The notes beneath the pieces are model-generated. The model saw nothing but the letters and a program-made list of their open reading frames with translations. It had not been told where the DNA came from and made no database searches. Below, piece after piece: positions 3,801-62,497 of a stretch of DNA of 64,000 nt. Position 1 is the first letter of the stretch; each line of letters begins with the position of its first letter. The DNA comes from Aphrocallistes beatrix (taxonomy: Eukaryota; Porifera; Hexactinellida; Sceptrulophora; Aphrocallistidae), in the NCBI GenBank assembly GCA_963281255.1, contig OY725494.1:4663934-4727933 (forward strand). The letters run 5' to 3'. The position numbers and the translations under genes are program-made.

Positions 3801-6800
3801 CTTTCGAAGAAGTAACAATCTTCATAATTAACCTTGGAACAATGGAGCAATTTCCTAATTATGTTCAAATTAAATTACGTTATTTGAGGTTGTAGTCAAA
3901 AGTTTTGACTCGATTTTTAGTAGCCTTTGTAGAGAAGTATTCACAAGAAACTGCAAGTCTTTCCTCTACAATTGATGCGTATGTAACGTATGCACTCAGA
4001 CAAGTAATTTAGTCATTATTTTATGGTTATAACTAAGGGGGAATCTTTGAGATTTAGTATAAGTGCCTACTCATAGGCGTAACTAATTGGATTTTTTCAC
4101 GGTCAGTTGGGGTGCTGAGATTTGTGAACATATATCAAACTAATGTAGCATGCGGTATGGTGGAAATAGTTCGCAAAAAAACGGAAATAGTTCGACTTTC
4201 CAAAAAAGGAAATAGTTCGCAAAAAAAAAACACCACTAATCCTAATGATAAAAAGTCGAACTATTTCCTAAATCCGCAATTCGAACTATTTCCTTTTTCG
4301 AAAAGTCGAACCATTTCCACATTACCGTGGCATGCCACCCCTGGAGTTACGCCTATGTGCCTACTCTTAATGGCGTTGCATCTTGGAGGTGCCTGTAAAC
4401 ATACAATCAACTCCGCTTATTAATCAGGACAAGTCTCCAGGAACGGAATGGTTTCCGCACTTAAAAGCTAATACTAAATTTCATCGGTTAATTGGGAACT
4501 CTGCTTAACCGGACAAAATATCCGAGAACAAAGTGTCCCGATTAAGCGGAGTCACCTGTTTATTAAATATAGAGATTAATTATTGTCCTGTCGCTACATA
4601 AATATTCCCCTCAGGAAGGGGAGAGCGAAAGAAATTAATAATATAAATATTTCATGAGATATTAACATTAGTCTCCAATATAAATACAATATACAGTGGA
4701 AGCCGCTTAATCGGGAGACGGATAATCGGGAAATCCGCTTAATCGGGACAAGTTGAAAGGGAACGGATTTTTTACATTATAAATTGATCGGTTAATCGGG
4801 ACAACAAATCGGTTAACCCTCGGTTGGCTAGGAATGTTGAAAGTGAAAATGAAAGTACATTGAAAGTGAACATGAAAGTGGGGTTTTCTCTATTTATACT
4901 TTTGAGACGTAGCCAGGCGAGGGTTAATCGGGACAATAATTCCCGTTTAAGCGAAGAAAAACTTTATTTTCCTCCGCTTAATCGGGAATTATTGTCCCGA
5001 TTAAGCAAAGAAAAACTTTCTTCTCCTCCGCTTAATCGGGAATTATTGTCATGTCATGTTAGAAATTCAAAGAGAAAATTAGGAAAGAAATATTCGCTCT
5101 TGAAAAGAAAATGCAAAAATTCTGAGCGAGCGGGTGCAAAATTACATATGCGAAATTTCTCACGAATGGTCAATCGAAACTATGTACATTATGTATATCT
5201 TGAAAACCATAACTCAGAATTAAATAATTAACATTCACAGCTGTTTTGAAAACACTTGATTAATTGGATAAGAGCTAGGACTTCAATCAAACATACATAT
5301 GTCACACCCTTACGCGAATTTATCATCTAAAAAGAAAATCTTGAAAGATAGATAAACGTAGAGTATTGTATTACATACAGGATCCCATATCGAATTTGAA
5401 AATCAGAATATTAGCTAACTTTTAAAATAACAAGGTCCTTTCAGAAGGAGTCCCACATTATTTATTTATTTTTTATTATCATAAAGAATTATTTTATTTA
5501 TTTATAAATTAAATTTCAGGGTTGATAAAAATCGGATTTTTTTTATTTAAATCAGATTTTTTTTAAAAAATTGCTTTTTGTAATCCATTTCACATTCTGT
5601 TATTATTTTGCTAATAAATCCACAATATTGAGATTCAGATAGTTTAATACTATATTATCCATTTAATTTTGCTTGAATTCATGTTATGATTAATTGCAAT
5701 AGAAAAATGTAGAAGAGAAATTTAGTACGCAGTTTTATATAGATAGATTGAGCATTCTGTAGATAAAAACAATCTTAGCCACCTTATCGATTCCAAGTCT
5801 ATTCTTTATGCTGGAATGTATATAGCCAAATGTTGAAAACATGTTGAATGTTGAAAACCGCTCAACTCTTGGCCATGCTGAATAATCTAATTTTTGATAG
5901 TAAGAAAGCCATTGATGAACATTGTTCACAATAATATGTGTGATCATTATAATTCGAATAGAGTCGAGTCTCGTTAATAAGAACCAGGGAATCTTCAAAA
6001 CTTGTACATATTATCCGGAATTCGTATTACCTGAAGTTAATTGCGTGCATTTGTACAGGGAATCAAACCTTGTTCGTCTTAGCGAGAGGCTACATTACTT
6101 TATCAATTGATTTAAATCATTTAAATCAAACAACCCTGCCCACATATTGATCAAAAACTTTCTAGAAGATGTAGTCTTTCCTTATACTTGTAATTATAAA
6201 CAAACAAACATGAATGGAGATTTAGAATAGAAAAGATAAATATCAAGAATAGCAAAAAGTACCCAAATATGGGCAAATTATGATCCAAACTATGTCTGAA
6301 ATAATTTTGTTTAATTTTTCTAAAGTAAACTGACTCTCTATTTTCTCAATTCTCTCTTCGAGGTTTAAGAGTTTATCATCCATTCCCTGGAATTTATTTT
6401 CAATCTTCTTTTCAAGGTTCAATAGTATTTCATCCATACTGTTGAATTTATTCTCAATCTTCTTTTCAAGATTCAATAGTATTTCATCCATACTGTTGAA
6501 TTTATTCTCAATCTTCTTTTCAAGATTCAATAGTATTTCATCCATACTGTTGAATTTATTCTCATTCTTTTCAAGGTTCAATTGTACATTGTCCATTCCC
6601 TGTAATTTATTCTCAAAATTATTCTTGAAAACGGTCAATTCATTTTCAAATTCTCTCTTCAACATCTCGATTTTGTTGTCATTTTGTGTTTGATAATGAA
6701 CAAACACTGAAATTGCCAGCACAATAACTGATAACAGAATCCATACACTACTTAATCCAGTATTTTTCTTCACACTTCTCTGTTCATTGTTCCCAATCAA

Positions 6801-9800
6801 TTTCTTCAGCAACAGCTGTTGGTGGAGAATTTGAAACTCTTTCAGATGTTTATCTATTTCTCTCCTCTTTAGTCGGTTTACCGCACACCCTATTACCTTA
6901 TAAGGACATTCCACACCGCCATTAGGACACACACGTCCTACATGCATATCCATCTCTTCTCTTATGACATCTTGACCACACCCAGCTACACACTTGATTG
7001 GTCGCTTCTTACAGGTGTTGAGATGCTCCATTTGTACTCTCCACTTCACTCCATCGTTACAGTATTGGCATATAGTTATTCTCTCTGGACATTCGTTATT
7101 TTGATGATCTAACACGAATTCTCTTTCCATTACTAATGCACACTTGAGAGAACATTCCAATAACAATTTCTCACACTTTTTCATATGTTCAGTTACATCG
7201 CCGAGTTTTCCTGCCCAATCACATCCCTTTCCTGATAAGGGACATCTGCATTTCTGTTGTGAGACCATTTGCTGTACATTCTCTATGGTTGGGCCTATCG
7301 GATTGTTGGTACAGTAGCGACAAACCATAGCTCGAGCAGTTTTGCAATAAATTCCTTCCCTGATTATACCCTTACACTCAGGACATACCAGGATAAGTTC
7401 AAATTCTTTTGACACCTCTTTCAGCAGTTCTTGCTTGTATCCCCTGGAAACCCCACCCTTTTCTATATATAGTAACGCTGGAATGGAATGTGGAGCTAAC
7501 TTTTCAGTCATTATTCTGCCAATGATAAAGCAAGTGAGGACACCATAGTAGTTGTACACGGTATATGGTGACTATGAACTCGTGCTCTATGGGTACTTAA
7601 TATCCGCATCAATTTCAATACACCGTATATACTACAAGATAGCCTTGATGGTTAAATCTTGAATGATAAAATAATGAATAATCTTTTGAGATTCTTTGCT
7701 CTCGTAGGAGTTATATGGTAGAACAAATACCTTCACTAATCCTTTATTCTAGAATCTCAAATGTCCCCTACTTTGATATTAATTAATACAGGTGACTCTG
7801 CTTAATCGGGTCACTTTGGTCCCGGATATTTTGTCCCGATTAAGCGGAGTTCCCAATTAACCAATGAAATTTAGTATTAACTTCTATGTACGGAACCATT
7901 CCGTTCCTGGAGACTTATCCCGATTTAGTGGAGTTGACTGTATTTTACGATAGAAATTATATTTGAACGGTGCTACGAAGTATTTCATTACTCCCAGGTA
8001 GACTTCTAAGTTTAAACATAGATAGATCCAATATGAATATTTCTCAATGTTATAGTACAGTGGTGTTAGAGCTGTGGCAGCTATGGACGACACATTTTTC
8101 TGTCTAGTATTGTTTAGTATGGGTGGAATGGTCGTACTATTTTGTAATTAAAACACAAAAGTATGGTTAAATAACACTCTGTGCCCTCATATTTAAACTT
8201 CCGTACAAAAATTGTATCCAACAATAGGTGAGCTAATACAGTAGAACTCGGCTAGTACGTACTCATTTCTCAAACCAAAATTCCATTTAATGTATATCTA
8301 GATTCCTATGTAATATCAACTCGGTTAGTACGTATATACGGATAGTACGTACTTTTTTCCGCTTCCCGGAAGGGTACGTCTTATCTGAGTTATACTAATG
8401 CTGAGCAAACCTACTAAATTACCTAAACTATCTTACACACTGGTCACACAATGTTACACATACAATTAGTCAGTAACTACATTCCTGTACAAGATGATTT
8501 GTATTGGCAGTCTGATCCATAAAAACTAAATTTCTTTGGAATTTTCAAGACTTGTTGATTTTCTTACGAGTGCGAAAGAAAGAGCTAAAAACACTCCCAC
8601 ATGTTTCACACATTCTTTCAAATTCAGTTTCCATCTTCTTTGTAAGATCAAATATTTTTTCATCCATAAGGTTAGGCAACTTAAACAAGTAATCTTCAAT
8701 TCTCTCTTTGAGGTTTAAGAGTGCATCATCTTTACTCTGGCCTTCAATTTCAATTTTATCATTGAGGTTCTTCAGTAGCCTGTCTATGCCCTGTAATTTG
8801 TTCTCAATATCATGTTTAAAACTCGTCAGTTCGTCTTTCAAAATTTTGTTGTCATTTTGTGTTTGATAATGAACAAACACTGAAATTCCCAACACAGCCA
8901 CTGATAATACCACAAATAGAGCTGATAGAATCCACACCCTTTCCAATTCATACTTCTTCTTCACACTTCTTCTCTGCTCATTGCTCCCAATCATTTTCTT
9001 CAGCAACAGCTGCTGGTGGAGAATTTGACACTCTTTCAGATGTTCATCTATTTCTCTCTTCGCTATCAGGCCTATATCACACCCTATTACCTTATATGGA
9101 CATTCTACATCTATCAACGACCTTGGACACACATTCATATGCTCAGTTACATCTTCGAGACTTCCTGTCCAATCGCATCCCTCTTCTGATAAGGGACATC
9201 TGCATTTCTGTGTAATGGAACGTGGAACTGACTTCCTAGCCATTTCGATCTAAGATTTGAAGTAAGTAGTATAGTTTGATCATGGAATAATACTTATAGA
9301 ACTGTAGTCCTGTGTGAATACATTCGAGTATCAGTTACATAGCATGATGTAAAGTAACATAGCTATGTAATACGTATTGTATTATATTAAACTATGTGTA
9401 GAAGGATGTTTTGATGGTCTAGCACGAATTCTCTTTGCATTACTAATGAACACTCGAGAGAACATTCCAATAACAATTTCTCACACACGTTCATATGTTG
9501 TTACATCGCCGAGTGTTCCTGCCCAATCACATCCCTTTCCTGATAAGGGACATCTGCATTTCTGTTGTGAGACCATCTGCTGTACATTCTCTATGGTTGG
9601 GCCTATCGGATTGTTGGTACAGTAGCGACAAACCATAGCTCGAGCAGTTTTGCAATAAATTCCTTCCCTGATTATACCTTTACACTCAGGACATACCAGG
9701 ATAAGTTCAAATTCTTTTGACACCTCTTTCAGCAGTTCTTGCTTGTATCCCCTGTAGACCCCGCCCTTTTCTATATATAGTAACGCTGGAATGGAATGTG

Positions 9801-12800
9801 GAACTTTCTAGCCATTATTCTGCCAATGTGATAAAGCGAGTGAGTGACACCATAGTAGTTGTACATGGTATATGGTGACTATGAACCATAGGTTAGTCTA
9901 GGATTTTCTAGTCCAGCACTTTTTTTCGAATGTGACAAAAGTTATATGGCACCCAAACAGGGGTTTATCTTGAAATTCTAGGGGAGGTGGCAACCCAGCA
10001 CCAAAATCAAATCACACTGCGAGCAGGGGAGCCGAACTTTTCGAAATCTATGAGTAATTTAGTTCTAGGGGGGCTCAGCCCTAGAATTTGTATTGTGTCT
10101 ATGGGCCATCTTCGAAACCAGGGGAGGCTCGAGCCCCCTCGGGTTTGGCGCCTATGACTGCAAAACACCTTGGCTCCTCGGACGATACCAGGCTGGCACC
10201 TAGATAAACCCCTGCTATGAACTCGTGATCTATCCTTACTATCAAAACTCGATTAATGTGTATATATGTGTGTGTATATATATATATATATACAGTCTGT
10301 CTCAGAAAAATCTGGAATTACTTAACTAGGCGTAATTAATAAAGTTTTGAAGATACAATTTCAAACGAAACCTATAATTCAAATAAAACTATTTAACTTT
10401 AATATTTTATTTTATAACCAGTCTACCACTGCCTACTTTCCTTTCGCAAGATAAAATTTTCTTCAAACGTGACAAAATCTCATAAATAGTCGATAAGGAT
10501 ACGCCCACAATACGTGAAATTTCTTTAGCTGAATGCTTTTTACCATCTAAACGTATCATGACGTGTTTACGCAACTCAATTTTTGACATCTCGATTGAAA
10601 TAAACTAGTCAGTAAGCAGAAAAATATAGATTATTGAATATGTTCAATAGATAGGAGCAAAAATAATTTATGATGACGTAATCGCAATTAAAGAGCAAAT
10701 ATTTTGGGAAAAAAAATTTCAAAATGTTGGCTAAAATGATGCTTAGAATGAAGACTACTCTTTACACGCATATTCGAAGAGAGAATTAACCTATATCACT
10801 ATCTTTGATAAAAGGAATATTATGGCTGTATATAAACCGAAATTCCAGATTTTTCTGAGACAGACTGTATATATCCATATTAAAACTCGATTAATATTTA
10901 TATACAGTCAACTCCCGTTATATCGAACACGGATATATCGAAATACCCGCTTATATCGAAGTTAATTAACAACCCCAAAGCAATCTCATTCAATCTAATT
11001 TATATGAATTCGCTTATATCGAAATTCCGCTTATATCGAAAGAAGGAACTTTCCCCAGTGATAATATACAGTTTTAATCCGGTTATATCGTCGAACACAT
11101 AAATTTAATAGAATCTGTATACTAACATATCTCACATATGATGCAACTATCATCAAAAAATGATTACTCATCACTTTGTTATGATGTCATTATTACGCAT
11201 CAAAATTTTAAAAATTGACAATTTTGGTGATTTTTCGTGCGATATCGATCATAACAGTAGGACAGACATATTTAGAGATGCTATCTCCCTTATAATTTAC
11301 CAATGTGATCCCAGCTGCGCAGCGTAAGCAGGCGAAGCGCGCTTGTGGGTATTTAATATCCGTATCAATTTCAAAATATTACTACAAGATAGTCTTGATG
11401 GTTAAATCTTGAATGATAAATTAATGAATAATCTTTTGGGATACTTTGCTCTCGTAGGAGTTATACGGTAGAACAAATACTTTCACTAATCCTTTATTCT
11501 AGAATCTCAAATGTCCCCTATTTTGATATTACTTAATACAGGTGACTCCGCTTAATCGGGACACTTTGGTCCCGGATATTTTGTCCCGATTAAGCGGAGT
11601 TCCCAATTAACCGATGAAATTTAGTATTAACTTCTATGTAGGGAACCATTCCGTTCCTGGAGACTTGTCCCGATTAAGCGGAGTTGACTGTATTTTACGA
11701 TAGAAATTATATTTGAACGGTACTACGAAATATTTCATTACTCCCAGGTAGACTTCTAATTTTAAACTTAGATAAGTCTAATATTAATATTTCTCAACGT
11801 TATAGTACAGTGGTGTTAGAGCTGTGGCAGCTATGGACGACACACTTTTTCTGTTCAGTATGTTTAGTATGGGTGGGATGGCCGTACTATTTTTAGTAAT
11901 TAATATTAACACTAAAGTATGGTTAAATGACACTCCGTTCCCTCATATTTCAACTTCCGTAAAAAGTATCTAACAATTGGCTAGCCAATAACATGCATTA
12001 ATGCTGACAAACCTAATACTAAACTATCTAATACATTAAACACACAATGTCACACATACAATTAGTAGTCGGCAGTCTGAGCCATATAAACTAAATACTT
12101 AAATTTCAAAACATTCCGATTAAATGCTTAGTAGTGCTGCCAAAAACATAGCCAAGTATGTCCATTATAACGCCTTGGAAAGATCTGGATTCAGTTTTTT
12201 CATACATTCTTTCAAATGCACTTCGCATCTTATTTTCAAGAGCAGATATTTTTTCATTGAAAAGGGTACGCAAATCAAACACATTCTTTTCAATTTTCCC
12301 TTCCAGTTTTAAGAGTGCATTGTCTTTACTCTGGGATTCAATCTCAATTTTATTTTTGAGGTCTTTCAGCAGAATGTCTTTCTTCTGGAATTCAATTTCA
12401 ATCTTATTTTTGAGGTCTTTCAGTAGATTGTCTTTATTTTGGGATTCAATTTCAATTTTATTTTTGAGGTTCTTCAGTGTATTTTCCATTCCCTGCAATT
12501 TTTTCTCAATATTATTTTTAAAACTCTTCAGTTCGCCTTTCAAAATCCCGATTTTGTCGTCATTTTGTGTTTGATACTGAACAAACACTCCCAACACAAT
12601 CACTGATAATACCACAATCACTGATAATAGAATCCACACACTTTCTAATCCACACATCTTCACACTTCTTCTCTGTCCATTGCTCCCAATCATTTTCTTC
12701 AGCAACAGCTGCTGATGGAGAATTTGACACTCTTTCAGATGTCTATCTAACTCTCCTCTCATTAGCCGGTTTTGCTTACATCCTATTACCTTATATGGAC

Positions 12801-15800
12801 ATTCTACATCTCCCGACGATCTTTCACATACACTCATATGCTCAGTTACATCTTCGAGACTTCCTGTCCAATTACATCCCTCTTCTGATAAGGGACATCT
12901 GCAATTCTGTGGATTTAACTTCCTAGCCATTTCGATCTAAGATTTGAAGTAAGTAGTATAGTTTGATCATGGAGTATACTTATAGAAATGTAAGTCCTGT
13001 GTGAATACATTCGAGTATCAGTTACATAGCATGATGTAAATAACATAGCTATGTAATACGTATTATATTATATCAAACTATGTGTAGAAGGACGAGTTGA
13101 TTGTTGTAGTATAGCAGAACTATAAATACTTTTACCTTCAATGATGATTCTGCTATCCAAACGGATTCTATCCTATTCTCCTATTTGAAAATCTCATTCA
13201 TTCTCAACTATGACAGTTAAAGGCAAAGTAGCAGTTATTAGCTAGTCGGGAATTGATAGTTTAATTAAATTTCTGTGGGAGATAATTCTGTTTTACTGGT
13301 AGAACAAGCGCGCTTCGCTTGCTTGCGCTGCGCAGCTGGCGACACAAAGTGTTCGCAGAGGCGTTCTTTGAGCGCCTAGGCTCACATTGAATAATTACTT
13401 AGGGCATTCAAAAAGTTCTCATCCCATATTTGTCCATTGTATTCCTTAGGGGATCAACTTCCAATTTCTACATTGGTTTATTTTAAGAGGATAATTATTG
13501 TGGTTCCTATTTTAGATTTTTGGCATCAGTTTAGGGTAGCGTCGAAAAGTTGGAATCTTCCCATTGAAAATGGCTAAAAACTAAATTTGGAAGAATAAAA
13601 GTTGTGAAAATCCGAGTTCTACTGTATTTATTTCAGTATTACGTACATATCACTCGACTCTTTCCAGTTTTGATAATTTGGCCTTATTCCAGTCTTGAAT
13701 TCGGTTTTATTCAGTCAACACATCTAGATTAGTATGTAGAACTCCATTTTAGACTCATTATTATTTTCCTGTGTGCCAAATTTCACATTCCTAGCACCTC
13801 CCAGCTCTTCAATCAACTTGCACAAACAAACAAACAAAAAACATTGTTTTAATATATAAAACTGTTGGCCGTACTATTCTTGGTAATTAAGAATAACACT
13901 AAAGTATGGGGAAAGGCCGACTGGACATTAAATGTCACTCTGCGCCCTCATGTTTCTACTTTCGTATGAAAATTGTATTCAGCAATTAGTTAGCTAATAT
14001 TATGCATCAATGCTGACAAACCTACTAAACTATCTAATACACTGAACACACAATTAGTTCACAACTGTACTCCTGTACAATAGGATTAGTAGTCGGCATT
14101 CTGATCCATATGAACTAAATTTCACATGTCGATAAAACGCTTCGTAAAGCCAAAAAAATAGGTAAATATGTCCTCAACCTTGAAATATCTAGATTCATTA
14201 TGTTCATACATTTCTCTAAATGTCATTTCCATCTTCTTTTCAAAAGCAAATATTTTTTCGTCGAAATGGTCACGCAAGTTTAACACGCTACTTTCAATTT
14301 CCCTTTCGAGGGTGATTAGTGTATCATGGATAGTTTGTAATTTCCTTTCAATTTTCCCTTCGAGTTTTAAGAGTGCAATGTCTTTCCTCTGGGATTGAAT
14401 TTTAATTTCATTTTTGAGGTCTTTCAGCAGATTGTCTTTACTCTGGGATTCAATTTTAACCTCATTTTTGAGGTCTTTCAGCAGATTGTCTTTACTCTGG
14501 GATTCAATTTTAATCTCATTTTTGAGGTCTTTCAGCAGATTGTCTTTATTCTGGGATTCAATTTCAATTTTATTTTTGAGGTCTTTCAGCAGATTGTCTT
14601 TATTCTGGGATTCAATTTCAATTTTATTTTTGAGGTCTTTCAGCAGATTGTCTTTATTCTGGGATTCAATTTCAATTTTATTTTTGAGGTTCTTCAGTGT
14701 ATTTTCCATTCCCTGCAATTATTTCTCAATATTATTTTTTAAACTCTTCAGCTCGCCTTTCAAAATTTTGTTGTCATTTTGTGTTTGATAATGAACAAAC
14801 ACTGAAACTCCCAACACAATCACAGCTAATAGAATCCACACACTTTCTAGTCCACACATCTTCTTCACACTTCTTCTCTGTTCATTGCACATTATTCCCT
14901 CAGCCTAAAACTAGAATACTTTAGAGAAGTCAATATACAGTCGACTCTCGTTAATACGAACACGGATAAGGAGTACAATCGGATAAGAAGTACAAGTTTT
15001 GATTCCCCAACCTAATCTATGGCAAAATATATACAAACGAACTCCGGTTAACACGAACACGGATAAGACGAAATATCGGATAATAAGTACGATTTGTGGG
15101 TCCCCTTCAGTGCGTTTTCAATACTAAATACATCAGTTAATACGAACACGGATAATACGAACAGGTGTGTGCCTACGAGCATTTTGAATATGGTACGTAG
15201 TATGTACGTAGATAGATACTAGACAGATATTTCTCAATGAAAATACAGTCGAATCTCGTTAATACAACATGGATAATGAGTTCTCTATTTGACAAGTACA
15301 ATTTCATGCTCTCACGTAGTTATCACTATGTATATTAAGTATTTTGGACAAATGTGGCTATGTACGTACTTCGGTTAATACGTATTCCGGATAAGGAGTA
15401 CAAATCTCCACGGTCCCTTGGTGTACGTGTTAACGAGAGTCGACTGTATATGTTAGTTGATGCGTAGAATTCGATGGAGGGATCAGTTTTAATCTAAATT
15501 TGCTCAGAACTGAAATATACTTGTATCAAAGGGAAAACCAAAATCACGTTCAAAGGGACTACCTTAAACCGATGCGCACAAAAATCTAATGTAGGAACCA
15601 CAATAATTGTCCATCAATAGGCAAAATACAAATTTCAATTATGAGTAATTAGAATGTGTAGTTTACGGATTTGAAATAAAAAATTATTCCTTACAGTTTG
15701 AGTACATATTCCTTTATGAATAGACCCACTTTAATTCTATTTGCATGGCGGTTTCTGTGGTGGTTGAATACTTTTGTCCGGGTACTGTCTATATGTACAC

Positions 15801-16942
15801 CAACCGGACAAAAGTATTTCAACAATTGATTCTTTCCCATACAAATAATACTAAAATGGGTCTATTCATGAAGAGGTTACTTCTAAACGGTATGGGATAC
15901 AGTTAATCGGGTTCCAGATTCGAATAATACGCATTGGAATTAGTCACAGGTTAATTTTTCTAATTAATCAGTCATTCCTAACTTTTTGTAATTATCAATC
16001 AGTGCCACTTTATGCCACATACACCCATTTTGACCACTATCCATGATGGCAATGAATTACCTATGGTGACTCAGGCTGATAAGATTGTTCATTGAGTTGA
16101 GTAATTTATTAAATATGTTCAACTATGACTAATTCGAATGTGTAGATTTCGAATCTGAAATCAGGTTTTAGTATCTCTTAGAATTTGAACGTATTGCCCT
16201 TCATGAAAAAATCCGGTTTACTATTATTTGTATGGGAAAGAATCAAGTGTTGAAATACTTTTGTCCGGTTGGTGTACTATATACACACACATATACACAT
16301 TAATCGAGTTTTAATAGTAATAATATATATATAATGTAACGAATTGATTGGAGAAACGGTAGGCGATTTTGGGCATGTGCGAGTATTTTGGCAATGGTTC
16401 CACTAAGTTCTGAGCTCAGACGAAAATGTCAACTCATCATGGAATTATGACGTCATTGTCACCTTTGTATAATTACAAATTTCAGTTTTTCGACTATAAC
16501 TCAGCCATTTTAGGTGATAGAAGGCTGAAATTTTAATAGAATGTGTATATTAATATACCTCACATATGATGCAACTATCATCAAAAAATGACTCATTACT
16601 CTGTTATGACGTCATCATTACGTATCAAATTTTTTAAAATGGACAAATTTGGTGATTTTTCGAGCGATATCGAATATAACAGTAAGATAGACGTCTTTAG
16701 AGATGTTATCTCCCATATAACTAAATAATGGTGACTACAGGCGCCCAAAGGGCGCCTCCGGCGGGCATAGTGTCTGCCAGCCGCACAGCGCAAGCAAGTG
16801 AAGCGTGCTTGTATATATATATAATATTATTCGCTTACATATGATACTGTATCAAAAAATAATGACTCATCACTGTTATGACGCCATCCTTACGCATCAA
16901 AATTTGATAAATTTCCTGCAAAGCGGAAGCAAGCGAAGCGCT

Positions 16943-16987
<45 letters not shown>

Positions 16988-19900
16988 GTGCCTCCGTGCG
17001 CCAGAGTTGCACGCGGGCCGATATAATAGGTTGCGAGCTCTGCAGGCCGGAAATCTGGGCAGAACTCCCCGCGATCACAACCGAGACGACGAATTGTCAC
17101 AAGGTACCAATCAAGGAATACTTACGTAAATGGAACTTTATTAGTTTCCACTTATTTGTGTTTGCAGAAACTCACTCCCATAAAAGGATTCCCTAAGTGT
17201 CTCTCTATAGTTAGTAACTTACAAAGCGGGCCAAAAATATTTATGCGGGCTTCTTGCGGGCCGCGGGCAGGGTTAATTTAAAATTGCGGGCCGTGGTTAC
17301 AAATTTCGGCCCGCGTGCAACTCTGGCGTACCCAATTATTTCAACTTTCGTACAAAATAGTACAGTATCTAATAATTGGTTAGCTAATATTATGCATCAA
17401 TGCTGAGCAAACCTACTAAACTATCTAATACACTGAATACACAATGTCACACACACAATTAGTTCATAACTGTACTCGTGCACAATAGGATTAGTAGTTG
17501 GCATTCTGATCCATATCAACTAAATTTCTTGATGTGCCGATAAAACGCTTCGTAGAGCTAAAAACATAGTTAAGTATGTCCATTATAATGCCTTGGGAAT
17601 ATCTAGATTCATTGTGTTCATACATTCTTCTAAATGCCATTTCCATCTTCTTTTCAAAAACAAATATTTTATCGTCAATACGGTCATCCAGTGTATTTTC
17701 CATGCCCAGTAGTTTGTTCTCAATATTATTTTTAAAACTATTCAGTTCGTCTTCAAATTGTTTCTTCAATATCTCGATTTTGTTGTCATTTTGTGTTTGA
17801 TACTGAACAAACACTGAAACTCCCAACACAATCACAGCTGATAGAATCCACACCTTTTCTAACCCATACTTCTTCTTCACACTTCTTCTCTGTTCATTGC
17901 TCCCAATCACTTTCTTCAGCAACAGCTGCTGGTGGAGAATTTGACACTCTTTCATATGTTCATCTATTTCTCTCTTCACTAGCAGGCCTACCTCACACCC
18001 TATTACCTTATATGGGCATTCTACATCTATCAACGATCTTGTACACACGCTCATATGCTCAGTTACATCTTCGAGTCTTCCTGCCCAATCACATCCCTAT
18101 TCTGATAAGGGACATCTGCATTTCTGTGTAATGGAACGTGGAATTAAATTCCTTGGTGGAATGGGAGGTGGAACTAAATTCCTAGCCATTTCTATCAAGG
18201 ATTTTGTGTCAAGTAAGTAGTTTGATCATGGAGTGATACTTATAGAACTCTAGTCCATGTGAATACATTGACAGTATTAGTTACATTGCATAATGTAAAG
18301 CAACCTACGTATATTAAACTATGTGTAGAGGGACGATAATTATTGGTTGAAGTACAGCAGAACTATAAATAGTTGTACCTTCAATGAATATTCTGTATCT
18401 AAACGGATTCTATCCTATTCTCCTATTTTACAAACTCATTCACTCTCAACTATGGCAGCTAAAGGCAAAGTTGCAGGTATTAGCCAGTTAGGAATTGATA
18501 GTTACTTTAATCTCTGTGGAAGATAATTCTGTTTTACTGGTAGAATGTAAGATATCGAGGATAACTCGCCTAATTTAAACGCGCTCGCTTGCTTGCGCTG
18601 CGCGGCTGGCGGACACTTTGTGTCCCCTAGAGGCGCCTCGACCCACATTGATTAATTATAAGGTAATTAACATCTCTAAATACATCTGTCTTACTGTTAT
18701 AATCAATAGCACTCGAAAAATCACAGAATAAGTAAATTTTTAATTTTTGATGCGTAATGATGACGTCATAACAGAGTAATGAGAAGTTTTATCATATTTA
18801 TGATATATTAATATACACATTCTATTAAAATTTCAGCCTTTTATATATATATTCAGTGTTGGCTGTGTTGATTTTGTTTATTCGACAGGAACCACTTTGA
18901 CAGCGGATGACTACCTCAAGAATGAGGGTTGGGTGCAACGAACAGAAGCCGCCTTTACCCAACTTGATCGAGACAAAGATGGAGTTATCTCTATTACCGA
19001 CGTTGTCATAGAATCGAAAAAATTTGCACATTTAAATCCAGATCCGGAAGTTATTGAGAGATATAGAATTGCACAGTGCGAGTTTGCAGCAGAAATGGGT
19101 ATAAAACCAGGGATTTCCGTGACTAAGGAAGAATATGTGAAAAACCTAGCAGCGATTGCCCCTCGAGAAGTTGCGAAAGTGAGGAGCGGAGAGGGATCTA
19201 TGATGCACAAGGGGAACAACAAACTGTTCGATGTTATCGATAAAAATCACGACGGAACTGTCTCAAAGGAAGAATACCGTGCATTCGCAGAAGCAACTGG
19301 CGTCTGGGAGCCAAGCTTTGTTGATAGTATATTCGATCTAATAGATACGAATAAAAATGGGAAATTGGAAAGGAAGGAACTGAGTGATTACGTGTACAAG
19401 CTAACCTTTACTCTTGACAGTGTGGCAGGAATGGACCAAGTAATGGAACTAATAAAACCTGCGGAAAAGTGAAACCTATATTGTTATTAGTGTGTTTAGT
19501 GCTAGGTTAGAAAGAATATTTTCTTATTAGAATTGTCGTGAGTTAATATAGGATTTATTCTGTTTGATAGTTGCAGATAGGAGTGAATAGGCCGTATATG
19601 TAATAAAATATACAACTAAATTATACATTTGTTTTCTTGATTTCCATTGGTTAAATTAATAAAACTGTAAGAGGTGTGAATTTATTTTTGGGCGATAATG
19701 TACAGGTATCATTATTTTGTAAACTTTTTCATTTCAACCAATCAGATTTCAAGTTGAAGAGTGATTACAACTTACTTAAATACATTGAGTTAGATATAAT
19801 CCATATTAACCAATCCATTCAACCTCAGCTGTAAATTAAAACCCTGAAGTTTCACTGGTCAGCACACTTCGCCACATTTTGTCACATTATGTAGCAAGGT

Positions 19901-26241: not shown

Positions 26242-26562
26242 ATGGGAGCCTTCGTATCACGCCGTGATCCTGGTTACATATATATCATTCGGGAATGCTA
26301 TCCTCAATATACAACACAGCAAACAAAATTCTATAAAGTTGGAAAAACGAAAGATCACATATCAAGACTCGCCAACCTTCAAACAGGAAATGTGAGGAAG
26401 CTAGAGTATGCATATCTAGTCGGTGTTAATTCCATGCGTCTAGCTGAGAATATAGCTCACCAGAGGCTGAATAAGTACAGAGTCAATTACGGTGGAGGGA
26501 GGGAGTGGTTCGAGATCCCAAACAATGAAATCAATGAGGTAATTTCCAATCTAGAACGATGA
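26242..26562 (+). CDS. T5orf172/GIY-YIG-like protein, copy A (truncated)
   Basis: 106 residues. GYIYII begins the GIY-YIG-like strand, FYKVGKT is the YIG-equivalent, and an Arg-bearing helix (ISRLANLQTGN) and the C-terminal EWFEI supply the conserved Arg and Glu of the T5orf172/MUG113 domain. The N-terminus MGAFVS fits the N-myristoylation pattern (Gly2, Ser6). Against copy B at 31033, a one-base insertion around the last codons gives an early TGA. The membrane tail seen in copy B is still recognisable at about 26925-27010, separated by extra sequence containing a MITE (26693-26884). Copy A is therefore a shortened soluble form or a pseudogene. Two other ATGs directly upstream are out of frame; the same arrangement occurs in copy B. 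Confidence 0.65.
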   Translation: MGAFVSRRDPGYIYIIRECYPQYTTQQTKFYKVGKTKDHISRLANLQTGNVRKLEYAYLVGVNSMRLAENIAHQRLNKYRVNYGGGREWFEIPNNEINEVISNLER

Positions 26563-31032: not shown

Positions 31033-31491
31033 ATGGGAGGCTCCGTATCATCAATTTCTCCACGCCCTGATCCTGGTTACATATATATCATTCAGGAATG
31101 CTCTCCTCAAGATCCAACACGGCAAACTGGATTCTATAAAGTTGGAAAAACGAAAAATCTGAAATCAAGACGCTCCACCCTTCAAACAGGAAATGTGAGG
31201 AAGCTAGAGTATGCACATCATTTCAGAGTGAATTCCATGTGCCAAGCTGAGAAGAGAGCTCACTGTGCGCTGATTCGCTACAAAGCCAATGGCTGTGGAG
31301 GGACTGAGTGGTACGAGATCCCAGACAATGAAATCCAGCAGTTCACTTCCATCGTAGACGATGCTATCAAGGAAGTTAAGAAGTCTGAGTCTAATATTAG
31401 TATCATTCTGGTAATAGCCATTCTGAATGGTCTAATTTTATGTCTGATTTTGTATGTTGTTTTTAATGCAATAAAACTATATATTACGTAA
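31033..31491 (+). CDS. Membrane-tethered T5orf172/GIY-YIG-like protein, copy B
   Basis: 152 residues, intact. Start MGGSVSS fits N-myristoylation (Gly2, Ser6). Domain: YIYII (16-20), FYKVGKT (34-40), an Arg-containing helix (KSRRSTLQTGN), AEK..H in the middle and a closing EWYEI around Glu92. A lysine-rich linker leads to one transmembrane helix (about 123-144) and a short tail. The catalytic-type residues Tyr, Arg and Glu appear present, so nuclease activity is possible, though many T5orf172 proteins are uncharacterised. Lipid plus helix would hold the domain at a membrane, an odd place for a nuclease. Upstream sequence is shared with copy A at 26180-26241. Similar domains occur in large DNA viruses and fungi (MUG113), so transfer is one possible origin. 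Confidence 0.75.
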   Translation: MGGSVSSISPRPDPGYIYIIQECSPQDPTRQTGFYKVGKTKNLKSRRSTLQTGNVRKLEYAHHFRVNSMCQAEKRAHCALIRYKANGCGGTEWYEIPDNEIQQFTSIVDDAIKEVKKSESNISIILVIAILNGLILCLILYVVFNAIKLYIT

Positions 31492-58310: not shown

Positions 58311-58318
58311 TATAAATA
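58311..58318 (+). promoter_or_regulatory. TATA box of DRAM-like gene 1
   Basis: TATAAATA 40 bases before the start codon; same spacing class as gene 2 (60198). Confidence 0.6.
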
Positions 58319-58357
58319 CAGCATTTAGTCCGAAACATTATCTCTATCTTCCTAACA

Positions 58358-59167
58358 ATGTACATCCCAGCTTGGATTCACATCATCGTGATGTGCCTTG
58401 TATTTTCACTCGGAATGATACTCACATACGCCATAGGAGTCTCACAACAACATTTCAGAGCTATTTTCCCATACATCAGTGACACTGGGTTTCTGTCTCT
58501 AGAAAACGGATTTTTCGTGCTCGTCTTCGGTATTACTTGTCTATTCCTTCTCTTCATCGCTTATATTCGCTTTAAAGATGCACATGTTCACGTGGAAGGC
58601 ATCTGTTTCAAGGTGTTCAATGTAGCCAACCTTATTTGTGCCATCTTATCAATTTTCTTCCTCCTCAGTGTCGCAGCCTTCGAATTTGATGATTCTCCAG
58701 CTTCTAATGATATACACTTCGCCTCTGCAGTCCTGGCTATATTCTTCAACTACTTGTACGCATTCGGGCAGGTATACATTGGCATTAGACTGCCACCAAA
58801 ATGCGTGTGGTGGAAATGGGTTATTTTCACGATACAGCTTGTCATGACAACTTTCGGAATTCTTCTCTTTTTCTATTTCTTCGGATCCAGTTTCTTTCCC
58901 GACGAGATTTTCTTCCTCTCAGTGCGTAACGTGTCTGCAATACAGAACAATGCCACTCTCCTGGAAAGCTATAACAACGGTCTAAAAATAGACTACTCCC
59001 GTGCTGTGGTGGAGTGGATTATTTTCGTGGAAGTTCTGGCGTTCTTTGTCACCTTCGTTCCAGACTTTCACCGCATCAGAGTCGACGTGTCCGTAACTAG
59101 GCCGCTCGATAGTCCGAAGGGACAGGAGAACTCTGTAGCGAATGAGCTAGGTGTGATTAAGAATTAG
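58358..59167 (+). CDS. DRAM/TMEM150 (Frag1/Sfk1)-family membrane protein 1
   Basis: 269 residues, single exon. Six predicted transmembrane helices: about 7-28, 51-70, 88-108, 121-143, 151-175 and 216-236. The family signature in the first loop is clear: FPYISDTG (37-44) followed by the Glu-containing LEN before helix 2. The loop before helix 6 carries two N-glycosylation sequons (Asn191, Asn198), placing it on the luminal or extracellular side. Family members act at the plasma membrane or lysosome in phosphoinositide signalling (TMEM150A/Sfk1) and autophagy (DRAM). The role here is unknown. First of a tandem set with 60237 and 61701; followed by a TTG microsatellite and an AATAAA at 59378. 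Confidence 0.85.
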   Translation: MYIPAWIHIIVMCLVFSLGMILTYAIGVSQQHFRAIFPYISDTGFLSLENGFFVLVFGITCLFLLFIAYIRFKDAHVHVEGICFKVFNVANLICAILSIFFLLSVAAFEFDDSPASNDIHFASAVLAIFFNYLYAFGQVYIGIRLPPKCVWWKWVIFTIQLVMTTFGILLFFYFFGSSFFPDEIFFLSVRNVSAIQNNATLLESYNNGLKIDYSRAVVEWIIFVEVLAFFVTFVPDFHRIRVDVSVTRPLDSPKGQENSVANELGVIKN

Positions 59168-59172
59168 ACTAG

Positions 59173-59244
<72 letters not shown>
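59173..59244. repeat. (TTG)n microsatellite
   Basis: About 24 TTG units starting a few bases after the stop of DRAM-like gene 1. A shorter run follows copy 3 at 62499-62536. Confidence 0.95.
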
Positions 59245-59245
<1 letters not shown>

Positions 59246-59377
59246 ATTTATTATAGTTTGAGTAGGTTTTCTCACTGTTTATTCACATTTATTTATCAAT
59301 ACTCATGAAGTTTCAATGTTTAAATAACGGAATATTTATCTGTATAAGGCGCTGGACTACATTGTCGTTTGAATTTT

Positions 59378-59383
59378 AATAAA
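59378..59383 (+). terminator. Poly(A) signal of DRAM-like gene 1
   Basis: AATAAA, overlapped by a second AATAAA; repeated at 62669 after copy 3. Confidence 0.6.
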
Positions 59384-59403
59384 TAAATATTTGTGGTTGA
59401 AAC

Positions 59404-59590
59404 CAGGTTACTATGCAGTCCTCCAGAGATACACTCCTAGTCTCAAACCCATACATTTCCAACGGCTAAATCGATAAATAACATTATGATATATGGTAAA
59501 TTGAGTAATATTCTAAATTTTCACGCTCCCAAACACTTTCGGGCTTAAAACAATACGCCTAAAGGAGCGTCTCGCACTCCTAGATAATCC
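59404..59590. mobile_element. GGAGCGT-type MITE 3' of DRAM-like gene 1
   Basis: Same family as 672-860, reverse orientation. The same insertion sits at the same distance from copy 3 (62697-62877), so it predates that duplication. Confidence 0.7.
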
Positions 59591-59700
59591 ATTGGTTGAA
59601 ACATGTAGCAATTTTTTCTGTAGTGGTTCATTCCTATTTAATACAAGCAACATCAGAGATGCCAAAGGTTAAGAAACATTTGAGCGAAATTACTTTATTG

Positions 59701-59758
59701 TATCCATCCATCCATCCATCCATCCATCCATCCATCCATCCATCCATCCATCCATCCA
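59701..59758. repeat. (ATCC)n microsatellite
   Basis: About 14 units of ATCC, matching the longer array at 63027-63128 in the second duplicate. Confidence 0.95.
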
Positions 59759-59830
59759 CTGGGTATGGTATATAGATAGAAACGACAGAATAGCTTGCCA
59801 GCAGACAGAGTAAGATCTCAATACTCGAAT

Positions 59831-60015
59831 GCATACTTGCCAATTGTCCCGTTTTTTCACTTTTCTATTGAGCTAATTTTCTCGAGTGTCCCGCTTGTAT
59901 ATGAAATTTCTCCTTTATATCCCGCTTTTTTATTCTATGTATAATACTTTTCTATTAATTCCCGCGAAATTCAACACTGCGTCGCTTTTATAACGGCTCA
60001 AGTTGGCATGTATGC
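59831..60015. mobile_element. GTCCCGCTTTT repeat element, complete copy
   Basis: GCATACTTGCCAATTGTCCC to CAAGTTGGCATGTATGC, inverted ends of about 13 bp. Confidence 0.6.
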
Positions 60016-60197
60016 GAATGACTTATATGAAAGTCCTCAGTTAACTTTGTAAGACTCTCTCCGACAGAGTAATGGCATACCCCACACACAAAGCACAATG
60101 AAAGACTGGCTCACGTGAAACCCCAGGATTAGATCACATGCTGTAGCTTACAAAGCATATATATGTGTGTAATTTGAGAATTAAAGAGTTTAGTCTC

Positions 60198-60205
60198 TAT
60201 AAATA
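60198..60205 (+). promoter_or_regulatory. TATA box of DRAM-like gene 2
   Basis: TATAAATA 31 bases before the start codon. The matching site in copy 3 reads TAAAATAC. Confidence 0.6.
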
Positions 60206-60236
60206 CATCGTTGCCATATAATTATCACTTCACAGC

Positions 60237-61046
60237 ATGTACATCCCAGCTTGGATTCACATCGTAGTGATGTGCCTTGTATTTTCACTCGGAATGATAC
60301 TCACATACGCCATAGGAGTCTCACAGCAACATTTCAGAGCAGTTTTCCCATACATCATTGACACTGGGTTTCTGTCGCTAGAAAACGGATTTTTCGTGCT
60401 TGTCTTCGGTATTACTAGTCTATTCCTGATTTTCATCGCTTATATCCGCTTTAAAGATGCACATATACACGTGGAAGGCATCTGTTTCAAGGTGTTCAAT
60501 GTAGCCAATCTTATTTGTGCCATCTTATCAATTTTCTTCCTCCTCAGTGTCGCAGCCTTCGAATTTGATGACTCGGAGGCTTCTAGTGATATACACTTCG
60601 CCTCTGCAGTCCTGACCATATTCTTCAACTACTTGTACGCATTCGGGCAGGTATACATTGGAATTAGACTGCCACCAATACGCGTGTGGTGGAAATGGGT
60701 TATTTTCACGATACAGCTTGTCATGACAGCTTTCGGAATTCTCCTGTTTTTCTATTTCTTTGGAACCAGTTTTATTCCCGACAGAGTATTCTTCTCCTCA
60801 GTGCGTAACGTGTCTGCAATACAGAACAATGCCACTCTCCTGGAGAGCTATAACAACGGTCTAAAAATAGACTACTCCCGTGCTGTGGTGGAGTGGATTA
60901 TTTTCGTGGAAGTTCTGGCGTTCTTTGTCACCTTCATTCCAGACTTTCACCGCATCAGAGTCGACGTGTCTATAACCAGGCCCCTCGATAGTCCAAAGGG
61001 ACAGGAGAACTCTGTAGCGAATGAGCTATGTGTGATTAAGAATTAG
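60237..61046 (+). CDS. DRAM/TMEM150 (Frag1/Sfk1)-family membrane protein 2
   Basis: 269 residues, intact, collinear with gene 1 and differing at only a few dozen positions (for example FPYIIDTG in place of FPYISDTG, losing the usual Ser of the signature). Six helices and both N-glycosylation sequons are kept, and the C-terminal cytosolic tail is near identical. The 3' flank differs from that of copies 1 and 3: the TTG run is minimal and the downstream DNA is unique to this copy. Confidence 0.85.
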   Translation: MYIPAWIHIVVMCLVFSLGMILTYAIGVSQQHFRAVFPYIIDTGFLSLENGFFVLVFGITSLFLIFIAYIRFKDAHIHVEGICFKVFNVANLICAILSIFFLLSVAAFEFDDSEASSDIHFASAVLTIFFNYLYAFGQVYIGIRLPPIRVWWKWVIFTIQLVMTAFGILLFFYFFGTSFIPDRVFFSSVRNVSAIQNNATLLESYNNGLKIDYSRAVVEWIIFVEVLAFFVTFIPDFHRIRVDVSITRPLDSPKGQENSVANELCVIKN

Positions 61047-61700
61047 ATTTGTTGTTGTGTTTATTATTCTGTTTAGATAGCTTATTCTCACTATTCATAT
61101 TATTATTAATACTTACATGGTGTCAAATAAGTTCTGTAAACTCCGTTAGGTATAAAATTTCACATACTCAAACAATCTTAGTTATTATGGTCTTAGACAT
61201 TGTAATTCGAATATTTTCAATGATTTCAGAATATTTTTCGATTCTAAGACCTGGAACTGTTTTGAGAAGAAAAATGTGTCCTGCCACGCAGCGAAAATCG
61301 CGAATCAGGGCCCACTGCTTCTGTAAAAATGTCTTCATAATCGATGTTCCATGACGATTTAGCACCAGATACCTTTCAATCACCATGATCATAGATGTCA
61401 CAGGTTAAGAAATAGATAATTAGATAGAACGATCAAATAGCTACCAGCAGACAGAGTAGGATCTCAATACCCAAATGACTTATATGGAAGTCCTCAGTGA
61501 AATTTGTAAGATTCTTTCCGATATAGTAATGGTATACCACTACAGTACGTGGAAGACTGGTAGTTTGTAGGTCACATGCCTATAGCATACTAAGCATGTG
61601 TAGGTATGATTTGAGAATTCTAATTAAAGAGTATAGTTGCTAAAATACACTGTTGAAAGTCCGTATCACTACTACACTATTATTCTCTATCTACTTAACA

Positions 61701-62497
61701 ATGTACATCCCAGCTTGGATTCACATCGTAGTGATGTGCCTTGTATTTTCACTCGGAATGATACTCACATACGCCATAGGAGTCTCGCAACAACATTTCA
61801 GAGCTATTTTCCCCTTCATCAGTGACACTGGGATTCTTTCGCTAGAAAACGGATTTTTCGTGCTTGTCTTTGGTATTACTTGTCTATTCCTACTCTTCAT
61901 TATTTACATTCGCTTTAAAGATGGACATATACACGTGGAAGGCATCCGTTTCAAGGTGTTCAATGGAGCCAACCTTATCTGTGGTATCTTAGCGGTTTTC
62001 TTCCTCCTCTCGGTTGCTGCATTCGAATTTGATAACTCGGAGGCTTCTAGGAATATCCATAACACCTCTGCAGTCCTGGCTATATTCCTCAATTACTTGT
62101 ATGGATTCGGGAAGATATACATTGGCATTAGACTGCCACCAAGACGCGTGTGGTGGAAATGGGTTATTTTCACGATACAGCTTGTCATGACGATTTTTGG
62201 ATTTATCCTATTTCTCTATTTCTTCGGATCCAGGTTTTTTCCCGACGAGATTTTCTTCGTAACGTGTCTGCAATACAGAACAATGCCACTCTCCTGGAGA
62301 GCTATAACAACGGTCTAAAAATAGACTACTCCCGTGCTGTGGTGGAGTGGATTATTTTCGTGGAAGTTCTGGCGTTCTTTGTCACCTTCATTCCAGACTT
62401 TCACCGCATCAGAGTCGACGTGTCTATAACCAGGCCCCTCGATAGTCCGAAGGGACGGGATACTGGTGAGAATGAGCTAGGTGTTATGAAGAATTAG
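61701..62497 (+). pseudogene. DRAM-like copy 3, frameshifted by 10-bp deletion
   Basis: Begins like the other copies (MYIPAWIH at 61701; an in-frame ATG 16 codons upstream is not shared). It reads normally through helix 5. At about 62260, the sequence TTCTTCGTAACG lacks the CTCTCAGTGC present between those halves in copy 1. This changes frame and ends the protein about 20 codons later, losing the glycosylated loop, helix 6 and the tail. The lost frame is open to 62497. The upstream TATA box is changed to TAAAATAC. Probably inactive; a five-helix product is possible. Confidence 0.85.

What the first reader, a model, noticed from the sequence alone, without database searches (positions are those of the whole stretch)
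6243..18189. Cluster of transmembrane TRAF-like proteins with an outward-facing coiled coil
Six related units share TRAF-type zinc fingers, one membrane helix preceded by lysines, and a coiled coil, with no MATH domain. Known TRAFs are soluble adaptors that reach receptors through MATH. Here the fingers appear fused to their own membrane anchor, with the variable coiled coil predicted outside, as in a self-contained receptor. Variable length and frequent gene death are what one expects of a fast-evolving recognition family. I know of no described family with this order of parts; the receptor idea is inference.
Basis: partly seen in the sequence, partly recalled or inferred. Interest (0 to 1): 0.75.

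Follow-up and report, generated by a model that had tools for sequence, protein, structure and literature searches.

The report
Membrane-anchored TRAF-like proteins of sponges
A probable sponge genome carries a small, decaying gene cluster for TRAF-type zinc-finger proteins with their own membrane anchor; relatives in other sponge sequence records share the anchor and also keep a MATH-fold domain beyond it, so these look like a shortened branch of an undescribed membrane-TRAF family.

Summary
The cluster is real. Three intact minus-strand genes (422, 232, 274 aa) and three broken ones. The intact proteins have TRAF-type zinc fingers, one strong membrane helix and a coiled coil built on an 18-residue repeat, with no MATH domain. 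'No MATH' holds here but looks derived: a profile search found P0007-P0010 (unnamed ENA records) and P0011 (glass sponge Oopsacas minuta), all with half-RING, fingers, a hydrophobic segment at the same place, a coil and a C-terminal domain of MATH fold; P0011's segment is weak. In a tree of the part before the helix, window gene A joins these and the helix-less P0003 at 100/97, apart from all 26 own-genome rows. The genome holds a very large TRAF-like set; 34 of 39 finger ORFs sampled have no helix, and two other loci gained anchors at other positions. Best reading: single-pass proteins, fingers in the cytosol, coil (ancestrally plus MATH) on the far side, acting as membrane-held finger platforms; a receptor role is plausible for MATH-bearing relatives, unproven. 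No description of such a family was found in my literature searches.

The parts
6243..7511 (-). Unit A, intact 422-aa gene: half-RING, TRAF fingers, membrane helix, coiled coil
   Evidence: zf-TRAF 4e-17; tree
7311..7385 (-). Half-RING of A (C-x2-C ... C-x2-C), one zinc site of the two in a RING
   Evidence: by eye; the assignment to RING site 1 is recalled
6822..7250 (-). TRAF-type zinc fingers of A
6699..6755 (-). Membrane helix of A (19-residue core)
   Evidence: -2.1 kcal/mol; 0 of 1000 shuffles; coordinates
6297..6686 (-). Coiled coil of A with 18-residue repeats (54-nt tandem repeat at 6343-6586)
   Evidence: long helix in a low-confidence model
8545..9243 (-). Unit B, intact 232-aa short form: two fingers, helix (8875-8931), coil
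9409..9807 (-). Unit B', dead fragment: half-RING and first finger region, 98% like A over 300 nt, frameshifted
12106..12930 (-). Unit C, intact 274-aa short form: two fingers, helix (12583-12639), coil with 3 repeat copies
14122..14862 (-). Unit D, broken: no fingers, helix (14794-14850), in-frame TAA (14719-14721), coil with about 6 repeat copies
17491..18189 (-). Unit E, broken short form: in-frame TAG (18097-18099) in the first finger, helix (17806-17862), short coil

Best explanation
The cluster is the shortened local branch of a sponge family of single-pass membrane TRAF-like proteins, ancestrally half-RING - TRAF fingers - membrane helix - coiled coil - MATH-fold domain. Shown by computation: the order of parts, its presence in other sponge records, common origin of the part before the helix, and absence of this family's MATH domain from the window and, at the sensitivity used, from the genome. 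Inferred: the helix is a signal anchor with the fingers in the cytosol, so that coil and (ancestrally) MATH lie outside or in a lumen; the coil oligomerises the protein as TRAF coils do; the half-RING, with one zinc site, probably has no ubiquitin-ligase activity. The intact window proteins would act as membrane-held, coil-clustered finger platforms that bring soluble TRAF-like partners to a membrane; the MATH-bearing relatives would be receptor-like, with MATH as the ligand-binding ectodomain.
Against: No transcript, protein or localisation data. Pfam finds no MATH in P0007 at E <= 0.1, so MATH rests on fold and on distant likeness to cousins. The P0007 model is low in confidence (mean pLDDT 62.9, pTM 0.31) and the A model poor (49.6, 0.24). 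P0011's segment is weak (+3.0; 139 of 1000 shuffles as good). Charges are undecided in 3 of 9, A among them. N-glycosylation sequons on the far side are not enriched (8 seen, about 9.3 expected over 8 proteins). The cysteine pair comes from at most two lineages. P0003 in the same clade has neither helix nor MATH, so parts are lost easily and ancestry could be read otherwise. dN/dS is weakly constrained.
Confidence: 0.55

Rival explanations
1. Self-contained outward receptor in which the variable coiled coil itself is the recognition part.
For: Helix and charge pattern as above; coil length differs between copies; fast turnover of copies.
Against: Coil differences are mainly repeat number of one 18-residue unit. 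Relatives put a MATH-fold domain at the end of the coil, a better candidate for binding. No sign of positive selection was shown.
Confidence: 0.12
2. Internal-membrane anchor: the helix holds the finger proteins on ER, endosome or another organelle, with the coil in the lumen or packed on the membrane, as a tether for soluble TRAF-like partners without any outside ligand.
For: No enrichment of sequons on the far side; MATH missing in the window copies.
Against: Nothing in the sequence names an organelle; not tested.
Confidence: 0.2
3. The whole cluster is a relic: all copies are decaying and none does anything.
For: 3 of 6 units broken; dN/dS 0.95 for B-C over 225 codons; loss of MATH and half-RING.
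Against: Intact frames of A, B and C are improbable under drift.
Confidence: 0.15
4. The hydrophobic stretch is a buried core helix of a soluble coil, not a membrane helix.
For: It runs on into the coil helix in both models; weak in P0011.
Against: Negative insertion energy in 7 of 8 intact proteins (A, B, C, P0007-P0010), reached by 0-5 of 1000 shuffles in those seven; 34 of 39 own-genome finger ORFs at +4.4 or above; more basic residues before than after it in most.
Confidence: 0.06

Closest known systems
TRAF family (TRAF2/3/5/6: RING, TRAF fingers, coiled coil, MATH)
   Same: Half-RING and TRAF-type fingers, then coiled coil; relatives end in a MATH fold
   Different: A membrane helix between fingers and coil; only one RING zinc site; no MATH in the window copies
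P0007-P0011, sponge records incl. Oopsacas minuta LOD99_12557
   Same: Same clade (100/97) and same order up to the coil; 25-35% identical to A
   Different: They keep a C-terminal MATH-fold domain; window copies have a longer repeat coil instead
P0003 (302 aa, ENA, unnamed)
   Same: Same clade by half-RING and fingers (34% identical), coiled coil at the end
   Different: No helix and no MATH
Meprins (membrane proteases with extracellular MATH)
   Different: Meprins are astacin proteases with MAM domains and no TRAF fingers
Other anchored TRAF-like genes of this genome (L043-L048, L025)
   Same: TRAF-like genes with one strong hydrophobic helix
   Different: Helix lies after the coil, before MATH (L043-L048) or at the very end (L025), so gained separately

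Membership tests
TRAF family | TRAF-type zinc fingers | tested here: met
   zf-TRAF 4e-17 in A; below cut-off in B, C, E
TRAF family | N-terminal RING with two zinc sites (absent in TRAF1, recalled) | tested here: not met
   A has C-x2-C ... C-x2-C only; B and C lack the region
TRAF family | Coiled coil | tested here: inconclusive
   18-residue repeat and long model helix; no dedicated coil predictor was run, oligomer state unknown
TRAF family | C-terminal MATH (TRAF-C) domain | tested here: not met
   none in the six units by Pfam, by tblastn of P0007-P0011 against the window (no match of the MATH part better than E 1.4)
Sponge membrane-TRAF clade (P0007-P0011) | Common descent of the half-RING and finger part | tested here: met
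   100/97 in a 33-row tree; only unit A could be used, the short units lack most of the part
Sponge membrane-TRAF clade (P0007-P0011) | Membrane helix between fingers and coil | tested here: met
   A, B, C at -2.1 to -3.8 kcal/mol
Sponge membrane-TRAF clade (P0007-P0011) | C-terminal MATH-fold domain | tested here: not met
   lost in the window units; present in the five relatives, fold shown for P0007 only
Cell-surface receptor | Surface display and ligand-triggered signalling | not testable with these tools
   needs experiment

The most novel reading that the evidence does not exclude
Sponges evolved a receptor-TRAF fusion: a type II membrane protein whose cytosolic part is a TRAF half-RING and finger array and whose ectodomain is a disulfide-bonded MATH domain on a coiled-coil stalk, so that sensing and TRAF signalling sit in one chain with no separate TNF or Toll-like receptor; in the window species the ectodomain was lost and only the stalked platform remains.
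Probability: 0.35. Interest if true: 0.8.

Novelty: new variant of a known kind. Interest (0 to 1): 0.6.

Why it matters
TRAFs are thought of as soluble adaptors that borrow a receptor. Sponge proteins in which TRAF fingers carry their own membrane helix, with a MATH domain on the far side in the fuller relatives, would show that receptor and adaptor can be one molecule. They give a concrete, testable system in an early-branching animal lineage whose genome holds a very large TRAF-like set, and they suggest that membrane anchors arose more than once in that set.

Tried and rejected
The first homology search with the whole 438-aa frame was swamped by coil words (8000 candidates, capped); limiting it to fingers and helix and then using a profile gave the relatives. 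MATH remnants in the window: no match of the MATH part better than E 1.4. Sequon count as topology evidence: no signal. Structure of A: poor model, used only for the long helix. NCBIfam: nothing meaningful. dN/dS of A against the others behind the helix is unreliable because the repeats align arbitrarily. A finder hit of the PDB sequences (2d9k, FLN29, E 1.6e-4) only repeats that these are TRAF-type fingers.

Literature (open-licence PubMed Central only). The phrase search was swamped by 'traffic'; its whole-word version listed 4 papers, none on such a protein by title and abstract start. For the two glass-sponge genome papers, PMC10280926 and PMC10282587, the listing counts no word beginning with 'traf'; I read only passages of both. 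I read one passage of PMC4772301 (TRAF domain-like domains enriched in the samples called SC and AQ) and passages of PMC8195603 (Amphimedon has 357 TRADD-N proteins of one clade; the authors say that species with such expansions show no matching MATH expansion). Other papers: listing only. The word 'sponge' for the window rests on its nearest relatives (P0011) and is an inference; no tool named the species.

Full report
OBSERVATION. On the minus strand, 6243-18189, there are six related units: A (422 aa from the ATG), B' (a frameshifted fragment, 98% identical over 300 nt to A's 5' half), B (232 aa), C (274 aa), D (no fingers, in-frame TAA) and E (in-frame TAG in the first finger). A, B and C are intact. 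Pfam finds zf-TRAF in A (4e-17) and only sub-cut-off finger matches in B, C and E; no MATH family at E <= 0.1 in any of the six pieces scanned. The short units join the first to the last finger of A and lack the half-RING and the fingers between (alignment).

THE HELIX. With the Hessa 2005 residue scale (values recalled), the best 19-residue segment scores -2.1 (A), -2.1 (B) and -3.8 (C) kcal/mol; D's is near zero and E's is +3.2, a lysine falling in the frame. Of 1000 shuffles of each intact protein, 0, 0 and 1 reached the observed value. Among 39 finger ORFs of at least 280 aa in the fetched parts of the genome outside the window (rows with the same first 60 residues counted once), 5 score below zero and 34 at +4.4 or above, with none between. 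K+R in the 15 residues before/after the helix: A 3/3, B 6/2, C 3/2, E 5/3, P0007 4/2, P0008 4/2, P0009 2/2, P0010 3/3, P0011 5/0 (D left out, its upstream part is cut): fingers inside in 6 of 9, undecided in 3, reversed in 0. N-glycosylation sequons on the far side are not enriched (8 seen, about 9.3 expected over 8 proteins).

COMMON ORIGIN. A tree of 33 rows using only the part before the helix puts window A with P0003 and P0007-P0011 at 100/97, apart from the 26 rows of the window's own genome; the next neighbour is the C3 locus L025 (98/93, long branch); order inside the seven is unresolved and the root is a midpoint. So the likeness is not one of helix and coil alone. In this genome the TM-coil part of A matches only units A-E plus one opposite-strand match inside A. 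The MATH part of P0007 has 7 matches at E <= 1, the best in a C15 ORF (1e-6, 29%); six of the seven lie in ORFs that I looked at and that have no helix, the seventh (C20:290259-290468) I did not look at. With the whole P0007, no match spans helix and MATH (87 of 436 candidates scored). The simplest history is loss of MATH in the lineage that made this cluster, then loss of the half-RING in the short units, repeat changes in the coil and death of half the copies.

SELECTION. Pairwise dN/dS over all aligned codons: B-C 0.95, B-E 0.81, C-E 0.86, C-D 0.56, E-D 0.66, B-D 1.09; before the helix A-B 0.74, A-C 0.62, A-E 0.87, B-C 0.82, B-E 0.49, C-E 0.95. This is weak constraint or a mixture; it does not show positive selection, and D and E include time as dead genes. 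Yet the intact frames are not what drift gives: simulated stops average 2.6-5.2 in B, 4.3-6.6 in C and 11.7-19.6 in A (no indels, one base composition, distances taken by me as about half the pairwise dS).

GENOME BACKGROUND. 118 matches to B (150 of 375 candidates scored), 151 matches to zf-TRAF (150 of 640 scored) and 122 to MATH_2, with arrays on C9 and C6. The cousins that I read mostly follow fingers - coil - MATH-like without a helix. Separate anchors: coil-TM-MATH in 6 of 12 C6 loci fetched (L043-L048; three of these frames are short), a tail anchor in L025, and in L026 a run of isoleucine and valine between fingers.

MECHANISM. Shown by computation: helix, order, clade, absence of MATH. 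Inferred: fingers in the cytosol; coil outside or in a lumen; coil-driven clustering; no ligase activity from a half-RING. The 18-residue unit has hydrophobic spacings 3-4-3-4-4, a coiled-coil pattern with one stutter (by eye). If MATH is outside, the MATH-bearing relatives are receptor-like and the window proteins are stalked platforms without the ectodomain.

NOVELTY. I found no description of a TRAF-type finger protein with its own membrane helix in the searches made, which cover open-licence PubMed Central papers only and show at most 20 rows each. I read passages of PMC10280926, PMC10282587, PMC4772301 and PMC8195603 and otherwise listings. I file it as a new variant of a known kind.

Noticed in passing
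window 26242-26559 (+) and 31033-31488 (+): Two T5orf172/MUG113-domain ORFs that start MGAFVS and MGGSVS (look like myristoylation signals, recalled); the second ends in a long hydrophobic stretch, so possibly a membrane-anchored GIY-YIG-like pair.
   Followed up: no
window 58316-62494 (+): Three tandem similar membrane-protein ORFs; the first matches Frag1/DRAM/Sfk1 (8.5e-17; the other two were not scanned); the third copy is split over two frames.
   Followed up: no
L043-L048 (G000 C6, 4.55-4.63 Mb): Second, separate kind of membrane-anchored TRAF-like gene: coil, then a helix rich in I and M just before MATH; neighbours in the same array have a non-membrane linker at this place.
   Followed up: partly
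L025 5842-7035 (-) (G000 C3): 398-aa finger and coil protein ending in a strong hydrophobic tail anchor (-3.6 kcal/mol); the locus is the nearest neighbour of the window clade in the tree (by the other ORF of the locus).
   Followed up: partly
window 12595-12629 (-): An 18-nt tandem duplication lies inside the membrane helix of unit C and lengthens it without loss of hydrophobicity.
   Followed up: partly
G000 C9 4.03-4.57 Mb and C6 4.43-4.67 Mb: Very large tandem arrays of TRAF-like finger genes, many with open frames of 300-570 aa.
   Followed up: partly
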